A DNA stretch of 43,746 nt from the NCBI RefSeq assembly GCF_000953855.2, contig NZ_DF970150.1:1-43746 (forward strand). The letters run 5' to 3'. The DNA comes from Mizugakiibacter sediminis (GTDB lineage: Bacteria > Pseudomonadota > Gammaproteobacteria > Xanthomonadales > Rhodanobacteraceae). Of this stretch, positions 1,729-40,290 are shown piece by piece. The notes beneath the pieces were generated by a model that had not been told where the DNA came from, searched no databases, and saw only the letters and a list, made by a program, of their open reading frames with translations. The position numbers were made by a program, and so were the translations under genes. Numbering within the stretch: position 1 is the stretch's first letter; the number at the start of each line of letters is the position of its first letter.

Positions 1729-1757
1729 TTGCCAGCCGCCGGCCCTGTGGCTAACAT
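1729..1757 (+). promoter_or_regulatory. Sigma-70-like promoter of the interrupted tRNA-Gly
   Basis: TTGCCA (1729-1734), a 17-nt spacer and TAACAT (1752-1757) predict a start near 1764, about 5 nt before the tRNA 5' end. This is the only promoter-like sequence seen upstream of the split tRNA and intron. It would drive the 5' half, the intron, the internal tRNA and possibly the maturase in one transcript. Confidence 0.55.
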
Positions 1758-1794
1758 CCCCGGGCCGGGCGGGTGTAGCTCAATGGTAGAGCTG

Positions 1795-1807
1795 TAGCTT
1801 CCCAAGC
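1795..1807 (+). other. Intron-binding sites IBS2 and IBS1 in tRNA exon 1
   Basis: IBS2 is TAGCTT (1795-1800) and IBS1 is CCAAGC (1802-1807), immediately 5' of the insertion point. They cover the anticodon stem and loop. Both are exact reverse complements of loop sequences inside intron domain I (AAGCTA at 2210-2215, GCTTGG at 2276-2281). Confidence 0.8.
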
Positions 1808-2209
1808 GTGCGACACGAGCCGCGTGTCCCACGCTCCAGCCGCGAAAGCGGCCGACTCTCCGTCGTAAACTGGAGCGACTGTCGGATCGATCTCCGACTT
1901 AACCGGACCTGTCCGGAAAGGGTGGCCCTGAACCTGTTAAACGGTACAGGGTCCACGCGGCGAAGGCCGCGCGAGTAATTGCCTGCTTTCCCCACAAGGG
2001 ATTGCGCAGGCCCGGTGTTCAGCCACCGGTAGCCTAGGAGCAGCGCGGGATTGGCAACAATCCTGTGCCGAGCGCTCTGACAATGTAGCCACCTCTCGGG
2101 GTACGCTGAACCCCGTGAGGGGTCGGCGTGATTCTGGAAGATGCATCCGGATGAGGCGCTAGGCTGGGTTGAAGGGTTAGTGCAAACGAACTGTCGCTCC
2201 ATCGTCGTC

Positions 2210-2281
2210 AAGCTATGAAGGGCTTAGGCATCTGACAAGCCCTGCCCAAAACGGGATAAGACCGGATGCGCCGCTGCTTGG
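2210..2281 (+). other. Exon-binding sites EBS2 and EBS1 in intron domain I
   Basis: EBS2 is AAGCTA (2210-2215). EBS1 is GCTTGG (2276-2281), shown in the 9-nt loop of a 7-bp hairpin (TGCGCCG 2267-2273 with CGGCGCA 2283-2289). Each pairs over 6 nt with exon 1. The 60-nt distance and the order EBS2 then EBS1 fit known group II domain I architecture. Against the internal tRNA copy, EBS1 would have one mismatch and EBS2 two. Confidence 0.78.
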
Positions 2282-2613
2282 TCGGCGCACGCTGACACCA
2301 CGGTCTTCGGCGAAAAGACAGAACCCTCCCAACTCTGTTACTTGTGCGGAACGTGGTAACTCCGTTGGTGCGTTGCCCCGCACTTGGGCAACTAGGCGAC
2401 CCGCGAGGATCGCTGATGCGCCAGCGGAAAGAGGAACGCGGAGAAAGCGAATGCCCGACGGTAATAGTCGGGATAGGGGATGAAACGATCGCCCCGACCC
2501 GAAAGGGTGCAGACTTCCGCGTGGTGGCCTGTCGCTAGACAGGTCTGACAACCGACTCCCGATGGGGTGACGAATCCCCACCGGGGGAGGCGTCCATCCC
2601 CAAAGGGTCATGG

Positions 2614-2687
2614 GCGGGCGTAGCTCAATGGTAGAGCTGCAGGTTCCCAACCTGCTGACGAGGGTTCGATTCCCTTCGCCCGCTCCA
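2614..2687 (+). tRNA. Intact tRNA-Gly(CCC) inside the group II intron
   Basis: A complete 74-nt tRNA: acceptor GCGGGCG/CGCCCGC, D-arm GCTC/GAGC, anticodon stem GCAGG/CCTGC with loop TTCCCAA (anticodon CCC, 2646-2648), variable TGAC, T-arm GAGGG/CCCTT, discriminator T and encoded CCA. It differs from the interrupted host tRNA by six nucleotides forming three compensated pairs: one in the acceptor stem and two in the anticodon stem. This indicates selection on folding in both copies. It ends 16 nt before the maturase ATG, and its 3' trailer contains the maturase ribosome-binding site. No separate promoter was recognised, so it is probably released from intron RNA by RNase P and 3' processing enzymes. 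Confidence 0.93.
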
Positions 2688-2703
2688 ACTTTGGAGGACT
2701 GAT

Positions 2704-4328
2704 ATGGACGCCATTTCGAGTGGCGATGTCGCCTCCACGCGCTGGACCGACTGGCACACGATCCCGTGGGCCGAGGCGTTCCAGCACGTCAGGAGGTTGC
2801 AGGCACGCATAGCGAAGGCAGCGGAGGACGAGAACTGGCGCAGCGTCAAACGGCTGCAAAAGTTGCTCGTCCGCTCGACCACCGCACGAGCAGTCGCGGT
2901 GCGCCGAGTGACGGAGAACCAAGGCCGAAAGACCCCCGGTGTGGATGGCATTACCTGGTCCACGCCCGCGGAGAAGTGGAAAGCGGTATCGACGCTGGAA
3001 TCGCGGCGGTACCGCCCTAAGCACTTCGCAGGATCCACATCCCGAAGGCCAGTGGCGGAAAGCGGCCCCTCGGCATACCGACGATGAAAGATCGAGCCAT
3101 GCAGGCGCTGTACTGGCTTGCGCTCGATCCCGTCGCGGAAACCCGAGGCGACCCGAACTCGTACGGCTTTCGTTCCGGACGCTCAACAGCGGATGCCATC
3201 GCTCAGTGCCACAACGCACTGAGCAGGAAGCACTCGCCAAAGTGGGTGCTGGAAGGCGACATCAAAGGTTGCTTTGACAACATCGGTCATGACTGGCTGG
3301 TGGGCAACGTGCCGATGGACCGGCGCGTGCTGTCTAAGTGGCTCAAAGCCGGATTCGTGGAGGGTCACAAGCTCTTTCCGACGGACGCAGGCACGCCGCA
3401 AGGCGGGATCGTCTCCCCGTGTTTGGCGAACCTGGCGTTGGACGGCATGGAGGGGCTGTTGAAAGACAGCCTTCCACGCCGGGCCAAGATCAACTTCATC
3501 CGATACGCGGACGACTTTGTCGTGACTGGTGCCTCGAAAGAGGTGTTGGAAACGCAGGTCAAGCCGATGCTCGTGGGGTTTCTCGCCGAGCGTGGTCTGC
3601 AACTCTCGGCGACGAAAACGAAGATCACCCATGTGACGGAGGGGTTCGACTTCCTTGGCTGGCATGTGCGGAAACACAAGGCGTTTCTGCGCATCGTCCC
3701 GTCAAAGCGAAACGCGACGACGCTCTACGCGAAAGTCAGAGACCGACTGCGCGAGCTGCGTGGTGCAAAGCAGGATGACGTGGTAGGAGCCCTTAACCCG
3801 ATCCTTCGGGGGTGGGGCAACTATCATCGAGTCGTGCACGCATCGCGTCCGTTCGCAAAGATGGATTACCTGATCACGCGCGCGTTGTGGCGCTGGGCGG
3901 TACGTCGGCATCCCATGAAGGGCAAGCGTTGGATCAAACGCCGCTACTTTCGGGCGAACGGCTCACGCGACTGGCTCTTTCAGACGGATCGTTTCAGTTT
4001 GGTGCGGCTGGCCAGCATTTCCGTGGACAAGCACATCAAGGTGAGGGCCGACGCCAATCCCTATGACCCCAAGGACGAGGCCTACTTCGACGAGCGTTTA
4101 ACTCGGCGGATGCGGTCTACGCTGCAAGGACGCAGGCGGTTGTATTGGCTTTGGGACAGGCAGGAAGGGCTTTGCCCGGTCTGTGCTGCCAAGATCACGA
4201 AGGCAACGGGGTGGCACGTCCACCATGTGGTCTGGCGGGTCTATGGTGGTCCGGATCGGCTGTCCAACTTGCAATTGCTCCACCCGACGTGTCACGTGCA
4301 GTTGCACGCACGCGCCACGAAAGGATAG
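2704..4328 (+). pseudogene. ltrA: Group II intron reverse transcriptase/maturase, frameshifted
   Basis: The first part (ATG 2704, GGAGG at 2693-2697) encodes the RT N-terminus to YRPK. The continuation LRRIHIPKASGGKRPLGIPTMKDRAMQ is in the next frame from 3024, so one base is missing near 3022-3023 (AAG-CA-CTT, where a proline codon is expected). The second frame (in-frame ATG 3084) is intact to 4328. It shows YGFRSGRS, TPQGGIVSPCLANL, the catalytic YADD, the thumb/X maturase region (GWGNYHRVVHA) and a C-terminal HNH endonuclease (CPVC...HVHHVVWR...NLQLLHPTCH). The full protein would be about 541 residues, normal for mobile intron proteins. The stop of frame one and the ATG of frame two overlap (ATGA), but reinitiation would lose RT motif 0/1. 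A recent mutation or a sequencing error are both possible. Confidence 0.9.
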
Positions 4329-4371
4329 GCTGCCGCTCGACTGGGTGACCGGATCGAGTCCAAGGCTGCTT

Positions 4372-4446
4372 GAGCCGTATGAGGCGAAAGTCTCGCGTAC
4401 GGTTCTGAGGGGGGAGGGTGGCCGCGAGGCCACCTTCCCACCCGAC
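4372..4446 (+). ncRNA. Group II intron domains V and VI
   Basis: Domain V is 34 nt (4372-4405), starting GAGCCGTATGAGG, with a GAAA tetraloop and a closing strand ending CGTACGGTTC. Domain VI follows as a G-rich/C-rich hairpin with a GCGA loop. An unpaired A at 4440 sits between two CCC triplets that both pair, seven nucleotides from the intron end (counting the A), which is the usual position of the branch-point adenosine. Confidence 0.92.
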
Positions 4447-4548
4447 TACTGACGAGGGTTCGATTCCCTTCACCCGCTCCATCTCCCTCCTGTCACGCAT
4501 CGGCGACCGGCGGCAGCGGCGCGACGGCACGCCGTTACCGGAGCGCGC

Positions 4549-5430
4549 ATGAAGATCGCCATCCTCTCGCGCAACCCGCGCCTGCACTCCACCGTGCGCC
4601 TGGTCGAGGCGGCGCGCGCGCGCGGCCACGTCGCCCGCGTGCTGGACCCGCTGCGTTGCTACATGCGCATAGCGCCGGGCGCGTTCGCGGTGCACTACAA
4701 AGGGCGCGAGCTCGCCGGCTTCGACGCGGTGATCCCGCGCATCGGCGCCTCGATCACCTTCTACGGCACCGCGGTGGTGCGTCAGTTCGAGCTGATGGGC
4801 GTGTACACGCCGAACGGTTCGGACGCGATCCTGCGCGCGCGCGACAAGCTGCGCTGTCTGCAGCTGCTGGCCGGCGAAGGCCTCGGCATGCCGACCACGG
4901 TATTCGGCGACAACCCCGACGACACCGCCGACCTGCTGGCCATGCTGGGCGAACCGCCGCACGTGATCAAGCTGAACGAGGGCGCGCAGGGGCAGGGCGT
5001 GGTGCTGGCCGAGAAGCGCGCCGCCGCGCAGAGCGTGATCGAGGCGTTCCGCGGCATGTACGCCAATTTCCTCGTGCAGGAGTTCATCCGCGAAGCGCAA
5101 GGCCGCGACCTGCGCTGCTTCGTGGTCGGCGGCAAGGTGGTGGCGGCGATGCAGCGCGAGGCCTCGCCCGGCGACTTCCGCTCCAACCTGCACCGCGGCG
5201 GCAGCGGCACGCGGGTGCGCCTGAGCGCGGCCGAACGCGCCGTGGCGCTGCGCGCGGCCGAAGTGCTGGGGCTGGAGGTGGCGGGCGTGGATCTGCTGCG
5301 TTCGGCGCGCGGCCCGCTGGTGCTCGAGGTCAACGCCTCGCCCGGCCTGGAGGGCATCGAGGCCGTCACCGGGGTGGACGTGGCGGCGGAGATCGTCGCC
5401 TACCTCGAGCGGCGGGTCGGTCGGCGCTGA
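4549..5430 (+). CDS. rimK: RimK-type ribosomal protein S6 glutamate ligase
   Basis: The 293-residue ATP-grasp protein matches RimK along its length: N-terminal [40 protein letters not shown], the ATP-binding stretch [19 protein letters not shown]-like [21 protein letters not shown], and the Mg-binding end [13 protein letters not shown]. RimK adds glutamates to the C-terminus of ribosomal protein S6 and can make poly-glutamate in the cytoplasm. The ATG is preceded by GGAGCG. It starts 67 nt after the interrupted tRNA-Gly and may be partly read from the tRNA promoter. No rimB-like partner is visible here. Confidence 0.93.
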
Positions 5431-5460
5431 ACGACGAAGTGGTTAGTACGAAAGTCGTCG

Positions 5461-5490
5461 TTGACAAGCCCCGTGACCCGTGTCTAGGAT
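5461..5490 (+). promoter_or_regulatory. Sigma-70-like promoter for the tandem paralogues
   Basis: TTGACA (5461-5466), an 18-nt spacer and TAGGAT (5485-5490) lie 69 nt before the ATG at 5559. The -35 box is a perfect consensus. A 7-bp inverted repeat (ACGACGA 5431-5437 with TCGTCGT 5455-5461) between the rimK stop and this promoter might be a weak terminator or an operator. Confidence 0.55.
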
Positions 5491-5558
5491 CGGCCGGTCG
5501 GCGCTGGCGATGGGCGCGGCGGCCGGTGGATCCATAACGTCAAACGGGGGAAATTCCC

Positions 5559-6047
5559 ATGAAGTTCGGCAAAGGTTGGGTGGTCGCCGGCGTGCTGGCG
5601 GCGCTGTACGTCGGCAGCGCGTTCGCGGCGGACAAGATCGATGTGGTGACCAAGGGCGACACCAAGGACAACTTCGAGGCGGTCGCCGCCGCCGTCCGCA
5701 AGCAGATGGGGCCGGGCGGCTACTATCAGTACGTGCAGAACGACGAGCGCCAGGCCGTGGAAGCCCGACTGGACGACATGCAGGCGCTGTTCAACCGCCG
5801 CGGCACCGTCGGCCAGATGACCGCGGACGAGAAGGTCCAGCTCGCCAACGACCAGGAAGCGATCAACGCGATCCTGGCCAAGCGCGACAGCCGCCGCGTG
5901 ATCTGCGAGCGCGTCCAGGCGACCGGCTCGCATCTGACCAAATCGGTCTGCAAGACCTACGGCGAGATCGAGCGCGAGCGCCGCGATTCCGTGCAGTACT
6001 TGCAGGATCGCCAGAAGCAGGCGACCCAGAACATCAGCGGCGGTTGA
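5559..6047 (+). CDS. Secreted protein of unknown function, paralogue A
   Basis: 162 residues with a clear signal peptide (MKFGKGWVVAGVLAALYVGSAFA). The mature part is mostly charged and helical: FEAVAAAVRKQM, a central DDMQALFNRRGTVGQMTADEKVQLANDQEAINAIL segment and a C-terminal CERVQATGSHLTKSVCKTYGEIERERRDS block with two cysteines that could form a periplasmic disulfide. GGGGGAA before the ATG serves as ribosome-binding site. I do not recognise a named family. The next gene is a same-length paralogue, so the pair arose by tandem duplication. Confidence 0.85.
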   Translation: MKFGKGWVVAGVLAALYVGSAFAADKIDVVTKGDTKDNFEAVAAAVRKQMGPGGYYQYVQNDERQAVEARLDDMQALFNRRGTVGQMTADEKVQLANDQEAINAILAKRDSRRVICERVQATGSHLTKSVCKTYGEIERERRDSVQYLQDRQKQATQNISGG

Positions 6048-6085
6048 GCGTGGCCGGCACGGATACGGGGCCCGAAGGTGCGATC

Positions 6086-6574
6086 ATGAACATTGCCAAA
6101 TGCGTTGCGTGGATGCTGGCGGCGGTGCTGGCCGCGATGGCCGGTGCAAGCCGGGCGGACGAACCCAAGCAGATCGTCAAGGCGGACAATGCCCAGGATT
6201 TCGCCGTGGTCGTCGCCGCCGTGCGCCAGGAAATGCAGACGGGCGGCCGTTACGAGTTCGTCCCGGAGGCGGAGCGCAGCACCATCGACACGCGGTTGGC
6301 CGACATGAGCGCGCTGTTCCAGAAGCGCGGCACCGTCGAGGCGATGACCGCCGACGAGAAGGTGCGGCTGATGAACGACCAGTCGGAGATCAACGCGATC
6401 CTGACGCGGCGCGACAGCGAACGCCTGATCTGCAAGCGCGAGGCGCCGACCGGGTCGCACCTGACGCGCTCCGTCTGCCGCACCTATGGGGAGATCGAAC
6501 GCGCGCAGCACGACAGTTGGAGATACCTCGAGGACCGCAGGATGCAGGCGACCCAGAACAGGGGCGGCGGCTGA
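6086..6574 (+). CDS. Secreted protein of unknown function, paralogue B
   Basis: Also 162 residues, starting at ATG 6086 with GAAGG upstream. Signal peptide MNIAKCVAWMLAAVLAAMAGASRA. It aligns with the preceding gene throughout: DFAVVVAAVRQEMQTGGRYEFV, DTRLADMSALFQKRGTVEAMTADEKVRLMNDQSEINAIL, and CKREAPTGSHLTRSVCRTYGEIERAQHDSWRYL, with both cysteines and the ATQN...GG tail kept. The 38-nt gap suggests co-transcription with paralogue A. Function unknown; the conserved Cys pair and TADEK block are the residues to examine. Confidence 0.85.
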   Translation: MNIAKCVAWMLAAVLAAMAGASRADEPKQIVKADNAQDFAVVVAAVRQEMQTGGRYEFVPEAERSTIDTRLADMSALFQKRGTVEAMTADEKVRLMNDQSEINAILTRRDSERLICKREAPTGSHLTRSVCRTYGEIERAQHDSWRYLEDRRMQATQNRGGG

Positions 6575-6736
6575 ACGACAGCGCCGGCGCGCCCGGACCG
6601 GCACGGGCCGATGCGGAAGGCCGTACAGGAGGCCTTCCGCTCCGCCCGGCCGGCGAATGAGGTACACGCGATCATCCGCGATGGGCCTAGATATGCCACA
6701 GTCGCCGCAGGGCGGCGTGGTCCGGAGTGAGACGAC

Positions 6737-7135
6737 ATGAGTCCGCGTCGAGTCAGCGAAACGCCGAAGCCCACCGAGGCCGAGCTGGACATCCTGCGCG
6801 TGCTGTGGGAGCGCGGTCCGTGCACGGTGCGCGAGGTGCACGAGGCGCTCTACCGCGACGAAGGCGCCGGCTACACGACCGCCCTGAAGCTGTTGCAGGT
6901 GATGCACGGCAAGGGACTGGTCGCACGCGACGACTCGCAGCGCGCGCACGTCTTCCGCGCCGCCGTCAGCAAGGAACGCACGCAGAAGCGCTTCCTCGCC
7001 GATATCGTGCAGCGCGTGTTCGACGGCTCGCCCTCGCAGCTGGTGCTGCATGCCCTGGGCAGCCAGCGTGCGACGCGGGCGGAGCTCGAAGAGATCCGCG
7101 ATCTGCTGGATCGGTTGAACGAGGAGGCGAAGTGA
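6737..7135 (+). CDS. BlaI/MecI/CopY-family transcriptional repressor
   Basis: 132 residues. The winged helix-turn-helix is typical of the BlaI family: PTEAELDILRVLWERGPCTVREVHEALY, then YTTALKLLQVMHGKGLVARDDSQRAHVFRAAVSKE, followed by a dimerisation tail (LADIVQRVFDGSPSQLVLHAL). The family represses its own operon and is cleaved or released when the partner membrane peptidase senses a signal. Its stop overlaps the start of the M56 peptidase gene (TGATG), the classic repressor-sensor pairing. I found no clear TACA/TGTA operator upstream, so the binding site is unresolved. Confidence 0.92.
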   Translation: MSPRRVSETPKPTEAELDILRVLWERGPCTVREVHEALYRDEGAGYTTALKLLQVMHGKGLVARDDSQRAHVFRAAVSKERTQKRFLADIVQRVFDGSPSQLVLHALGSQRATRAELEEIRDLLDRLNEEAK

Positions 7136-8943
7136 TGGAGACCTTGCCTGCACCGTTCCTCGACACCGTGCACGTGCTCGGCTGGACGCTGCTGCATTTT
7201 CTCTGGCAGGGCGCCGCCGTCGGCGCGCTGTATGCGCTGGTGCGCATGCGCGTGCCGCGCGGACGCGCGCGCTACGCGCTCGGCATGGCCGCGCTCGCCG
7301 TATTGGCATGCTGCCCGCTGCTGACCGGTTGGCGCCTGCTGGACGGCATGGCCGCTGCGGTGGATGCCGACGCGACGGTGCTGGCCGCGATGGCCGTCAC
7401 GCCGGCGGCAGGCGATGCCGCGCAGCCGGCGTGGCGCGAGCTGGTGAACGCCGCGCTGCCTTGGCTGGTGGCCTTGTGGGCGATCGGCGTGCTGCTGCTG
7501 ACGTTGCGCGCCTGGCGCCACTGGCGCCAGATCAAGCGCCTGCTGCGCGAGGCTTCGCCGCTGCCCGAGTGGGAAGCGCGCTTGCGCGAACTCGGCCGGC
7601 GGCTGGGGCTGCGGCGCCGCGTGCGCCTGCTTTGGTCGCAGCGCGTCGCCACCCCCACCCTGATCGGCTGGCTGCGGCCGGTGATCCTGCTCCCGGCCGC
7701 GGTCGCGCTCGGCTTTCCGGTCGCCCAGGTCGAACTGATCCTGGCCCACGAGCTCGGCCACATCCGCCGCTGGGATCACCTCGCCAACCTGCTGCAGCTC
7801 GTGCTGGAGACGGTGCTGTTCTATCACCCGGTGGTGCACTGGATTTCGCGCGACGTGCGCAACGAGCGCGAGATCTGCTGCGACGAACTGGTGCTGGAAG
7901 TCACCGGCGGCAGCCCGCGCGTCTACGTCGAGGCGCTGGCCGATCTCGAGGACCTGCGCGACGGCCATCACGGCCTGGCGCTGGCGGCGAGCGGAGGCGT
8001 GCTGGTCGAGCGCGTGCGCCGTATCGCCGGCATGCCGCTGGTCGGACGTTCGGCGCGGCCGCAGGCACGTTTCGTCGTCGGTTTGCTGCTCGCCATGCTG
8101 GCCGCGGCGGCGGCCCATTACCAGCTTGCCCGCCTCGACCAGGCGCGCATGGCCGGCCTGACCGCCGCCCTCGCCCGTGTCAGCGCCGTACTGGCGCCGC
8201 AACTGCGGCTGGCACCGCCGGCATCCGGCGTCGGCGAGCGTCTCGCCGACCTGGTGCCGAAAGCGCTGCCGTTGCCGCACCTGCGGTTGCCGGCGGCCGC
8301 AGCCGAGGCATCGCCATCCGTGACGTCGCCGTCGCCGCGGTCGATGCCCGACGCGGCACGTCCGGCGGCCGCGCCGGCTGCCGTCGAGCCGATGGCGGCG
8401 CGGCCGGCGGACGCACCTGTCGCGGCGCCCGCCGCTCCGGTTTCGGCGACCGCCCAGCCGCAGCCGACGGCCCGACCCGAGGGGGCGTCGCTCACGGCCG
8501 GGCACACGGCGCCGACCATCCTGTTCCTGGTGCGCCCCGTCTATCCGGAAGGCGCGATCGCCAAGGGCATCGAGGGCGAGGTCGAATTCGAATTCGCGCT
8601 GGCCGGCGACGGCACCGTGCGCGACGTGCGCGTGGTCGAGTCGAACCCGGTCGGCGAATTCGAGGTGGCCGCCCGTCGCGCCCTGGACCGTTCGCGGTTC
8701 TCGCCGCCGACCTCGGCGGATGCGGACAGGCGGTATCGCCAGACCTTCGTCTTCAGCCTGCGGCCGCAGACGGCGCCGGAGCCGAGCGAGGACGTGCGCG
8801 CCGCCGGCGATGTGGCCGCGCAGACGGGATGCCGCATCGTCACCGGCTCGCACATCTGCCGGCGACCCGACGAGTTCGGCCCGGCGTTCCAGCCGGAGAT
8901 CTACGGAGCCGCGCGCGGCATGCCCGCGCCTTCGGTGCCCTGA
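7135..8943 (+). CDS. BlaR1-like M56 membrane metallopeptidase with TonB C-terminal domain
   Basis: 602 residues. Membrane segments occur near 11-38, 48-65, 105-125 and about 305-325. The zinc peptidase motif HELGH is at 205-209 with the downstream glutamates of NEREICCDELVLE. A long Ala/Pro linker (about 370-460) leads to a periplasmic TonB-like C-terminal domain (RPVYPEGAIAKGIEGEVEFEFALAGDGTVRDVRVVESNPVGEFEVAARRALDRSRF). Instead of the beta-lactam-binding domain of BlaR1 it carries a TonB_C fold, a known architecture in Xanthomonadales; the signal is unknown. It is translationally coupled to the BlaI-like repressor and probably inactivates it by proteolysis. Confidence 0.9.
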   Translation: METLPAPFLDTVHVLGWTLLHFLWQGAAVGALYALVRMRVPRGRARYALGMAALAVLACCPLLTGWRLLDGMAAAVDADATVLAAMAVTPAAGDAAQPAWRELVNAALPWLVALWAIGVLLLTLRAWRHWRQIKRLLREASPLPEWEARLRELGRRLGLRRRVRLLWSQRVATPTLIGWLRPVILLPAAVALGFPVAQVELILAHELGHIRRWDHLANLLQLVLETVLFYHPVVHWISRDVRNEREICCDELVLEVTGGSPRVYVEALADLEDLRDGHHGLALAASGGVLVERVRRIAGMPLVGRSARPQARFVVGLLLAMLAAAAAHYQLARLDQARMAGLTAALARVSAVLAPQLRLAPPASGVGERLADLVPKALPLPHLRLPAAAAEASPSVTSPSPRSMPDAARPAAAPAAVEPMAARPADAPVAAPAAPVSATAQPQPTARPEGASLTAGHTAPTILFLVRPVYPEGAIAKGIEGEVEFEFALAGDGTVRDVRVVESNPVGEFEVAARRALDRSRFSPPTSADADRRYRQTFVFSLRPQTAPEPSEDVRAAGDVAAQTGCRIVTGSHICRRPDEFGPAFQPEIYGAARGMPAPSVP

Positions 8944-15589: not shown

Positions 15590-15612
15590 GGCGTTTGCTC
15601 CGTGGGATTGGC

Positions 15613-15690
15613 AGCGGGCGCCGTTGTGGGGGTTGGCCGCGCCGAGCCTGGCTCCGGTTCGCACGGAGTCGCAGCGCCCCTCGGCGGGAA
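15613..15690 (-). promoter_or_regulatory. SAH riboswitch upstream of ahcY
   Basis: On the minus strand the leader reads GCCGAGGGGCGCTGCGAC, a variable hairpin, GCCAGGCTCGGC, then CAACGGCGCCCGCT. GCCGAG pairs with CTCGGC, and GGGCGC(TG) pairs with the later GGCGCCC to form the pseudoknot known from the SAH riboswitch family. These riboswitches turn on ahcY when SAH accumulates. It ends 23 nt before the ahcY ATG. Confidence 0.9.
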
Positions 15691-33776: not shown

Positions 33777-34919
33777 TCAGCGGCGGCAGCGCCGCTGCGC
33801 GGCGATTCCGCCCCGCGCGGCACGCTTGCGTGCGCGCCAGAACAGGAAGCCGCTGACCAGCAGCAGCGACGGCAACAGGCCGGCGAGCGCGACCAGCGCG
33901 CGCCAGGCGCCGCCGCCGGCTGCGCCCATGTGCAGCGGATAGATGTTGTCGCTCATGCGCGCGCCGGCACCCTGGCGCGTCGCGTCGCGCACGCCGAGCA
34001 CGCGGCCGCGGTACGGGTCCAGCCAGATCACGCTGCGGCCGACCGGATGCCGTTCGCCCGCCGCCTGCGCGCGGATCGCCACTTTCGCATCGCGCGCGCC
34101 CGGCAGGACGAGACGGCGCAGTGCGGCGCCGGGCAGCGCCGCTTCCGCGGCGGCCAGCGTTGCGTTCCAGTCGAAGGGACGCGCCTGCGGCACCAGCAGC
34201 GGCGGTGGTGCGGGCTCCGGCGCATCGGCGAACGCAGCGCGCAGCGCGGCGCGCGTCGGCGCGTGGTAGACCATCGCCGTGCCGGTGGCGGTGACGGTGA
34301 GCAGCAGCGGCAGCGCCAGTGCACCAAGGCTGCGGTGCCAGCTCAGCCAGCGTCGCGTCGGCGGCTGCGCGTGCGGGCGCAGGCTGGAGAGCAGCGCGCC
34401 GCGCCGCGGCCACCACAGCCACAGCCCCGACAGCAGCAGGAACAGCGCGAGCAGCCCGACTCCACCCAGCACCTGCTCGCCGCGCGCGCCGGCGAGCAGG
34501 TGCGTATGCAGTTCGCGCAGCCACAGCAGCGCATCGTTCGACGGCGTGCGCGTCAGCAGCAGCGCGCCGGTCTGCGGGTCGAGGTAGCGGCGCGCGCCGT
34601 CGGCGAAGTAGAGCTGCCAGACCGGCAGCGCGGGCGTCGGCAGGTCGAGCGCGGTCAATCCCGCCGGACGCGCGGCACCGCCCAGCGTGTCCAGCACGGC
34701 GGCGAGCTGCGCGCGATCGGGCAGCGGCCTGCGCAGTTCCGGGTGCTGCCACAGCAGCAGTTCGCGCTGGAACGCCAGCGCCGTGCCGGACAGCGCGACC
34801 AGCGCGAACGCCAGTCCCGCGCTCAGCCCGAACCACAGGTGCAGGCGTTTCAGCCACGCGCGCGCGCGGACCGGCCGTGCGGCCGGCGCTGCCTGCGCGC
34901 GCAGCGGCGCAGCGGCCAT
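33777..34919 (-). CDS. PepSY-associated transmembrane protein
   Basis: 380 residues with four strong helices: WFGLSAGLAFALVALSGTALAF, LGGVGLLALFLLLSGLWLWW, LGALALPLLLTVTATGTAMVY, and LVALAGLLPSLLLVSGFLFW, bracketing periplasmic PepSY-like regions (HPELRRPLPDRAQLAAVLDTLGG; QLYFADGARRYLDPQTGALL). Histidines such as HLWF, LHTHLLAG, WHRSLG and YPLHMG are placed as in diheme-type iron-uptake reductases. The ATG overlaps the receptor stop, so it is co-translated with the TonB receptor and probably helps release iron from the imported chelate. Confidence 0.88.
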   Translation of the reverse strand: MAAAPLRAQAAPAARPVRARAWLKRLHLWFGLSAGLAFALVALSGTALAFQRELLLWQHPELRRPLPDRAQLAAVLDTLGGAARPAGLTALDLPTPALPVWQLYFADGARRYLDPQTGALLLTRTPSNDALLWLRELHTHLLAGARGEQVLGGVGLLALFLLLSGLWLWWPRRGALLSSLRPHAQPPTRRWLSWHRSLGALALPLLLTVTATGTAMVYHAPTRAALRAAFADAPEPAPPPLLVPQARPFDWNATLAAAEAALPGAALRRLVLPGARDAKVAIRAQAAGERHPVGRSVIWLDPYRGRVLGVRDATRQGAGARMSDNIYPLHMGAAGGGAWRALVALAGLLPSLLLVSGFLFWRARKRAARGGIAAQRRCRR

Positions 34920-40174: not shown

Positions 40175-40290
40175 GGCGCGTGCAGCCAAAGGTCTCGCCG
40201 GGCTTCTCGCCGTCCGCGCCATGGCCGGTGGGCCAAGCGTGTTGACGCGGACACCGCGGCGTCTCGCCGCGGCAGGCTACTCCCCGATGG
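40175..40290 (-). promoter_or_regulatory. yybP-ykoY manganese riboswitch
   Basis: On the minus strand the leader contains GGGGAGTAGCC, a GCCGCGGCGAGACGCCGCGG hairpin, GTCAACACGCTTGGCC, a GCGCGGAC arm and AAGCCCGGCGAGACCTTTGGC. The GGGGAGUAG...UCAACA...GGCGAGACCxUUGGC core is diagnostic of the yybP-ykoY family, which senses Mn2+. It lies directly upstream of the Mn exporter gene. Confidence 0.9.

What the first reader, a model, noticed from the sequence alone, without database searches (positions are those of the whole stretch)
1769..4481. Group II intron in tRNA-Gly(CCC) that carries its own intact tRNA-Gly(CCC)
The sequence shows a tRNA split in its anticodon stem by a complete group II intron, and a second full tRNA of the same anticodon inside the intron in the domain IV position just before the maturase. 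The two tRNAs differ only by three compensated base pairs. Inference: the intron invades a possibly single-copy tRNA gene and brings a replacement, so insertion is harmless or even selected. I know of mobile elements that restore tRNA ends at att sites, but not of a well-described family of group II introns with a rescue tRNA as cargo.
Basis: partly seen in the sequence, partly recalled or inferred. Interest (0 to 1): 0.95.

Follow-up and report, generated by a model that had tools for sequence, protein, structure and literature searches.

The report
Introns carrying the tRNA they interrupt
A family of bacterial group II introns sits inside glycine-tRNA genes and carries within itself an intact gene for that same tRNA, which likely replaces the copy that the intron interrupts.

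Summary
Observation confirmed. A 2,639-nt group II intron (1808-4446) splits tRNA-Gly(CCC) and holds a second, intact tRNA-Gly(CCC) (2614-2687) just before its maturase ORF, which is frame-broken here. It is a family: 39 introns in tRNA-Gly genes form one maturase clade with one gain of the cargo; 38 have a readable internal tRNA-Gly, one has an assembly gap in it, and none was found in 51 outside relatives. In 37 of 38 carrier genomes the cargo is the only intact tRNA-Gly(CCC) gene found; a same-genus empty site equals the joined exons 74/74. Cargo copies covary as cloverleafs. One genome holds a sister intron in tRNA-Gly(UCC) that carries tRNA-Gly(UCC), with a matching EBS2 change. Most cargoes (33 of 37) differ from their own target within the recognised stretch. 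Best reading: a natural home-and-rescue retroelement. Rescue, cargo expression, splicing, mobility and self-immunity are inferred; exon halves are not decaying, cargoes show more stem mispairs than exons, and a group II intron in a single-copy tRNA gene is known (TeI4h). Ten open-paper searches listed no such cargo.

The parts
1729..1757 (+). promoter-like site TTGCCA-17-TAACAT upstream of the split tRNA; the only one the scan found in 1600-2760, so none directly before the internal tRNA
   Evidence: consensus match only
1769..1807 (+). 5' exon of the split tRNA-Gly(CCC) gene (39 nt, through tRNA position 40)
1808..4446 (+). group II intron, 2,639 nt
2011..2158 (+). group II intron segment RF02012 (group-II-D1D4-7)
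   Evidence: 109 bits
2210..2214 (+). proposed EBS2 (AAGCT), pairs with IBS2 AGCTT (tRNA 29-33)
   Evidence: matching change in L212
2276..2281 (+). proposed EBS1 (GCTTGG) in hairpin loop 2267-2289, pairs with IBS1 CCAAGC; the cargo has CCAACC
2614..2687 (+). cargo: intact tRNA-Gly(CCC) with encoded CCA
2704..3087 (+). maturase, first frame (RVT_N domain); the frame breaks near its end
3084..4328 (+). maturase, second frame (RVT_1, GIIM, HNH)
4370..4446 (+). group II intron 3' domains (RF00029, Intron_gpII)
   Evidence: 65.6 bits
4447..4481 (+). 3' exon: rest of tRNA-Gly(CCC) with CCA (35 nt)
4549..5430 (+). RimK-like gene (name recalled), flank marker; 96.6% identical over 291 aa next to the empty site in the same genus

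Best explanation
This is a clade of group II introns inserted in single-copy tRNA-Gly genes that carries, just before its maturase ORF, an intact tRNA-Gly gene of the same anticodon, which is likely a rescue copy that would replace the interrupted gene and be a poor target for the intron itself. Inferred steps: the intron would retrohome into tRNA-Gly(CCC) between nt 40 and 41 through EBS1-IBS1 (6 bp) and EBS2-IBS2 (about 5 bp). The insertion would cut the host's only gene for that tRNA. The cargo tRNA, transcribed with the intron from the host tRNA promoter, would fold by itself in domain IV and be cut out by RNase P and 3' processing, so the host would keep its tRNA whether or not the intron splices well. 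Cutting it out would split that intron transcript in domain IV, so each transcript would serve either rescue or splicing and mobility. Changes in the cargo's anticodon stem would weaken pairing with EBS1/EBS2 or at +1, sparing the cargo from reinsertion and from acting as a decoy splice site.
For: Clade: carriers are one side of a branch (SH-aLRT 99.8) and need one change on the tree, 38 carriers versus 51 others; still one change with L212, 39 versus 51. Found by junction alone, 11 of 11 tRNA-inserted introns, window included, have the cargo. Target single-copy in 191 of the 193 family genomes with a match, 197 searched. Cargo is the only intact tRNA-Gly(CCC) found in 37 of 38 carrier genomes; the 38th has an N gap. 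Cargo kept as a tRNA: in 24 of the 37 tabulated cargoes (17 distinct) 98.0% of 357 cells are paired and 8 pairs change on both sides; 0 of 500 shuffles reach the paired percentage or the covariation score, 4 of 500 the 8 pairs. Mean pairwise identity of cargoes 86%, of the 150 nt before them 59%. Empty site in the same genus equals the joined exons 74/74, flanks 90% over 1,503 nt. Matched retargeting: in G496 one intron sits in Gly(CCC) with Gly(CCC) cargo, its sister (maturase 77.5% identical) in Gly(UCC) with Gly(UCC) cargo and EBS2 AGGCT instead of AAGCT; that cargo is the only Gly(UCC) match there. Cargo differs from its own exon within nt 29-41 in 33 of 37; stems of the target type (G39, T41) in 3 of 37 cargoes versus 69 of 80 uninterrupted class genes.
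Against: No expression, splicing or mobility data. Exon halves are not decaying: 22 of 25 joined exons (one a duplicate contig) have no mispair in the three stems checked, against 23 of 32 cargoes, so the exons look, if anything, better kept; splicing may still make tRNA or insertions may be young. TeI4h sits in a single-copy tRNA-Ile(CAU) gene and is argued to splice to a functional tRNA (PMC2882425, passages). tRNA-Gly(CCC) may be dispensable, since UCC can read GGG (recalled). Immunity is not uniform: 4 of 37 cargoes match their exon over 29-41 (L047, L055, L057, L194); cargo has fewer EBS1+EBS2 pairs (G-U allowed) than the exon in 22 of 36, the same in 12, more in 2; in 6 of 36 the exon itself misses the fifth EBS2 pair. 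Cargo does not simply follow the intron: distance correlation with the maturase is 0.25, against 0.21 for the exon, and cargo-exon is 0.36. The count of further pair types is not above its shuffles (180 of 500). No promoter was found just before the cargo. The retargeting is a single case.
Confidence: 0.62

Rival explanations
1. The intron splices well enough that the exon tRNA is the working gene; the cargo is a second functional copy that gives dosage or insurance, not a needed replacement.
For: Joined exons are intact, slightly better paired than the cargoes, and in the window equal the uninterrupted gene of a sister species; TeI4h in a single-copy tRNA gene is argued to splice (PMC2882425).
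Against: Retention of the cargo in all 39 clade members found (one gapped), and the matching of cargo to target in the one UCC case, are more than insurance needs. In the window the maturase frame is broken, so maturase-aided splicing is doubtful there.
Confidence: 0.22
2. The tRNA serves the intron in cis: as a processing site that frees the maturase mRNA, or as a folded block in domain IV.
For: It ends 16 nt before the maturase ATG in the window, and the predicted fold pairs the stretch just before the ATG with upstream intron sequence, enclosing the tRNA.
Against: Any tRNA would do, yet the cargo has the anticodon of the interrupted gene wherever both were read: Gly-CCC at the CCC sites, Gly-UCC at the UCC site. 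Relatives without tRNA have a short leader before the maturase (11 read).
Confidence: 0.09
3. A passive hitchhiker: a tRNA captured once by recombination and not yet lost.
For: A single gain on the tree.
Against: Clade members down to 55% identity to the window maturase (L061) keep it, with compensated stem changes; the anticodon-stem type changed at least 17 times on the tree without a visible loss; the cargo anticodon switched with the target.
Confidence: 0.04
4. Assembly artefact or binning error joining two tRNA loci.
For: tRNA repeats do break assemblies; the contig of L032 looks like a copy of L033 in another bin and was dropped.
Against: Same structure in genomes held as one contig, G231 and G570, and in isolates and MAGs of several proteobacterial groups, with cargo differing from exon in nearly all.
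Confidence: 0.01

Closest known systems
TeI4h group II intron of Thermosynechococcus elongatus, in the single-copy tRNA-Ile(CAU) gene (PMC2882425; passages read)
   Same: Group II intron with RT/maturase in a single-copy bacterial tRNA gene; the best sequence match of the maturase among solved structures is 6me0, which I recall to be TeI4h
   Different: The passages argue that it splices to give the tRNA and mention no internal tRNA; another tRNA; its insertion position was not compared
Plastid trnK intron with MatK (PMC4424553; passages read)
   Same: Group II intron in an essential tRNA gene with a maturase-type ORF
   Different: MatK has lost RT activity according to the passage; no cargo tRNA is mentioned in the passages
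Integrative elements that restore the 3' end of the tRNA gene they enter (recalled)
   Same: Mobile element that repairs the tRNA gene it uses
   Different: Restores only the 3' part by att identity; here a complete second tRNA is carried inside an intron, with its own changes
Engineered home-and-rescue and cleave-and-rescue gene drives (recalled)
   Same: Element disrupts a gene and carries a recoded copy of it
   Different: Engineered, nuclease-based, protein genes; here natural, presumably by reverse splicing, RNA gene
Intron-encoded tRNAs of fungal mitochondria (PMC7902536; one figure legend read)
   Same: A tRNA gene lies inside an intron
   Different: Drawn under the gene whose intron holds them; nothing in that passage says that they replace an interrupted tRNA gene

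Membership tests
Group II intron | 5' core and 3' catalytic domains in order on one strand | tested here: met
   RF02012 109 bits and RF00029 65.6 bits, same strand
Group II intron | 5' end GUGYG, 3' end AY | tested here: met
   GTGCG at 1808, AC at 4445-4446
Group II intron | EBS1/EBS2 pair with IBS1/IBS2 | tested here: met
   6 + 5 pairs in the window; EBS1 found in all 37 introns tabulated, EBS2 pattern in 36; EBS2 change with the UCC target. By sequence only.
Group II intron | Intron-encoded RT/maturase | tested here: met
   TIGR04416 362 bits for the intact relative P0002; the window's second frame scores 276.8, below the cut-off of 300; open frame of 540 codons or more in 35 of 37, not in the window and L082 (that of L105 may run off the contig end)
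Group II intron | Splices and retrohomes | not testable with these tools
   no RNA or mobility assay; same site in many hosts and an empty site fit retrohoming
Subgroup IIB | EBS3-IBS3 rather than delta-delta' | tested here: inconclusive
   one column met a loose criterion for pairing with +1, not cleanly
Functional tRNA-Gly (cargo) | Cloverleaf with compensated stems, Gly anticodon, CCA | tested here: met
Functional tRNA-Gly (cargo) | Expressed and charged | not testable with these tools
   no RNA data
Home-and-rescue element | Disrupts a gene and carries an intact copy of it | tested here: met
   anatomy and single-copy status
Home-and-rescue element | The carried copy restores a needed function | not testable with these tools
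   no growth or RNA data; need for the gene not tested
Home-and-rescue element | The carried copy resists the element | tested here: inconclusive
   33 of 37 differ from the target within 29-41, 4 do not; pairing lower in 22 of 36, higher in 2

The most novel reading that the evidence does not exclude
A natural RNA-based home-and-rescue gene drive: a retroelement that destroys a single-copy tRNA gene while delivering a recoded, self-immune copy of it, and that moved to a second, essential isoacceptor gene (tRNA-Gly(UCC)) by changing its guide (EBS2) and swapping its cargo to match. Uninterrupted host genes with non-target stems would then be drive-resistant alleles or relics of cargo left after intron loss.
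Probability: 0.42. Interest if true: 0.95.

Novelty: new variant of a known kind. Interest (0 to 1): 0.9.

Why it matters
[quoted passage not shown] This clade points to another solution: bring the gene along. It would be a natural counterpart of engineered rescue drives, has one case of guide and cargo changing together, and gives a ready system to ask whether tRNA excision and intron splicing compete on one transcript. It also suggests that a cell's only intact gene for a tRNA can lie inside a mobile-type element.

Tried and rejected
Strict immunity through EBS1/EBS2: not uniform. A cleanly covarying EBS3: not found. Cargo strictly inherited with the intron: not supported by distance correlations. 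By D-arm type, 26 introns are gamma-type in exon and cargo, 8 have a beta-type exon with a gamma-type cargo, 3 are beta-type in both. Cargo stem type CCAACC as unique to introns: rejected, 3 of 80 uninterrupted class genes have it. Clade members on plasmids: none seen; 1,360 records with matches, all under 60% identity. Dedicated promoter for the cargo: none found by consensus scan. Rows dropped: L032 (looks like a copy of L033 in a Planctomycetota bin); pattern hits that are not tRNAs, L158 and L159 (ARAGORN) and L177, L179, L184 (read); G138, which is the genome of L033 again (same contig place). Slips mended: one search found the 5' exons but no cargo because of a wrong spacer (redone); the intron start was first set one base late, so one search printed False for the identity of the joined exons with L160, and with the right boundary found them identical; one search listed L082 and L105 as without tRNA because they had not been scanned, and one search found their tRNAs; D-stem columns were one base off, the counts used are those. 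In one search the exon base at +1 was taken as the partner of nt 29; it was read directly in 35 of 37 introns (not L044, L105). The class genes were typed by positions 39 and 41 alone and only the 11 non-target ones were looked at in context.

Full report
What is there. The window holds tRNA-Gly(CCC) split between tRNA positions 40 and 41, in the 3' strand of the anticodon stem, by a 2,639-nt group II intron (exon 1769-1807, intron 1808-4446, exon 4447-4481). Rfam finds a 5' segment and the 3' domains. Between them, ending 16 nt before the maturase ATG, lies a complete tRNA-Gly(CCC) with CCA (2614-2687). It differs from the joined exons at six positions that make three compensated pairs. The predicted RNA fold of 2440-2705 forms the cloverleaf inside a larger stem (z -3.92). 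The maturase has RT, maturase and HNH domains but is read in two frames here. Among 37 introns tabulated, 35 have an open frame of 540 codons or more; the other two are the window and L082 (the frame of L105 may run off its contig).

The host. The genome is 3.12 Mb, 99.93% complete, with one maturase of this kind. The pattern for an intact Gly(CCC) stretch from anticodon loop to T-loop matches once, and that match is the cargo. ARAGORN typed the 30 of 42 Rfam tRNA hits that were fetched as loci and found Gly(UCC) and Gly(GCC) elsewhere. Rhodanobacter denitrificans appears to be in the same family (contig length of P0007 equals that of G231). In the same genus, G001 has an uninterrupted gene identical to the joined exons over 74 of 74 nt, with flanks 90% identical over 1,503 nt and the same downstream gene at 96.6%.

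A clade, not a curiosity. In L055 and L036 an inserted element lies in or beside the cargo, which was read from the other side of it (L142, L145). On the maturase tree the carriers are one side of a branch, SH-aLRT 99.8, one change, 38 against 51, and one change with 39 against 51 after adding L212. In the 51 others ARAGORN found no tRNA inside the intron; the tRNAs it reported in L058, L074, L085, L086 and L093 lie 1.8 kb or more before the match and so outside the intron, judged from distance (intron starts about 1.0-1.4 kb before the match in the outside loci read). Searching by exon-intron junction only: 12 of 233 family genomes match, 9 are true tRNA junctions and 3 chance hits, and all 9 carry the cargo; 3 of 369 class genomes match, the window and two more, both with cargo.

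Single copy and sole copy. Of 197 genomes of the family 193 have a match, 191 of them exactly one. In carriers the only true match is the cargo: 25 of 26 genomes (the exception is L053 with the gap; a second hit in G204, L159, is not a tRNA by ARAGORN), 11 of 11, and the window's own genome, together 37 of 38.

Kept as a tRNA. In 24 cargo sequences (17 distinct; 13 of the 37, the beta-type and several later-found ones, were not included) 98.0% of 357 pair cells are standard and 8 pairs change on both sides. No shuffle of 500 reaches the paired percentage or the covariation score, 4 of 500 reach the 8 pairs, and 180 of 500 reach the number of further pair types, so that last measure says nothing. 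The anticodon loop, T-loop positions 52-57 and CCA do not vary among the 24. Mean pairwise identity is 86%, against 59% for the 150 nt before it, although between the closest introns the flank is as conserved as the tRNA.

Guide sequences. EBS1 GCTTGG sits in a hairpin loop and pairs with CCAAGC in the exon in all 37 rows; EBS2 is AAGC plus T or A and pairs with tRNA 29-33 (36 rows matched the EBS2 pattern). The fifth EBS2 position does not track the exon in 6 of 36 rows, so I do not lean on it alone.

The second target. One is in Gly(CCC) with Gly(CCC) cargo (L195). The other lies between tRNA-Tyr and tRNA-Thr in Gly(UCC); its joined exons read as Gly(UCC), and its cargo is Gly(UCC). There is a run of N upstream of that tRNA, not in it. 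Its EBS2 is AGGCT, the exact partner of AGCCT in that exon. The cargo is the only Gly(UCC) match in that genome. tRNA-Gly(UCC) is normally the only reader of GGA (recalled), so this gene should be essential. This co-change of guide and cargo is the best support for replacement as the function; it is one case, and no other was found in 11 genomes of that order.

Recoding. Exons have the stem type A29-T41 with C31-G39 in 34 of 37 introns, cargoes in 3 of 37; 33 of 37 cargoes differ from their own exon within 29-41 (exon +1 read directly in 35). Among 80 uninterrupted genes of the class, typed by positions 39 and 41, 69 have the target type (listing; the 11 others were checked as uninterrupted). 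The cargo stem type changed at least 17 times on the tree. This fits selection for a copy that the intron does not recognise, at DNA or RNA level. Against it: four exceptions, lenient pairing counts lower in only 22 of 36, and introns sitting in T29-A41 genes in three cases.

Mechanism and limits. I think the cargo rescues the interrupted gene (62%). Shown: anatomy, clade, single-copy target, sole intact copy found, tRNA-like evolution, matched cargo in the UCC case. Inferred: retrohoming, transcription from the host promoter, processing of the cargo, cost of insertion, immunity. The exon halves remain well paired, 22 of 25 without a mispair against 23 of 32 cargoes, so spliced tRNA may also count.

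Literature. Ten full-text searches (two searches returned no paper) in open PubMed Central papers listed no title or abstract on a group II intron with a replacement tRNA; I saw listings only, and subscription papers and preprints were not searchable. Passages read: PMC8919778, PMC4033280, PMC4424553, PMC2882425, PMC10455443, PMC7902536. The nearest precedent is TeI4h in tRNA-Ile(CAU), for which splicing alone is argued.

Noticed in passing
L142, L197, L198 with L055 (Thauera, G219): About 21 kb of foreign DNA sits in the T-arm of the cargo tRNA, which is restored on one side (without the encoded CCA) and left as a 3' remnant on the other: an integrative element appears to have used the intron's cargo tRNA as its attachment site.
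   Followed up: partly
L036, L145, L199, L200 (Solimonas fluminis, G200): A second such case: cargo tRNA and maturase are about 88 kb apart on one contig, an 18-nt tRNA end remnant lies before the maturase, and an ORF that looks like a tyrosine integrase (by eye, not searched) lies next to the cargo tRNA.
   Followed up: partly
L044 around 5300-7750: Domain V of the intron appears to be interrupted by another group II intron (a twintron), read by eye.
   Followed up: no
L196 (G149) and L034: An uninterrupted tRNA-Gly(CCC) upstream of the rimK-like gene is identical to the cargo of L034; it may be the source of a cargo or what intron loss leaves behind.
   Followed up: partly
protein list: At least 25 of the 120 listed maturases lie on contigs of 1.81-1.83 kb, close to the distance between the cargo T-arm and the 3' exon T-arm; assemblies probably break at the repeated tRNA halves.
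   Followed up: no
window 15609-15688 (-) and 40184-40289 (-): SAH riboswitch (54.6 bits) and Mn2+ (yybP-ykoY) riboswitch (50.6 bits).
   Followed up: no
window 34753-34842 (-): ARAGORN calls tRNA-Ala(GGC) but Rfam reports no tRNA there at its cut-off; probably a false positive.
   Followed up: no
L032 (Planctomycetota MAG): The contig looks like a copy of the proteobacterial L033 in a foreign bin, likely contamination.
   Followed up: partly
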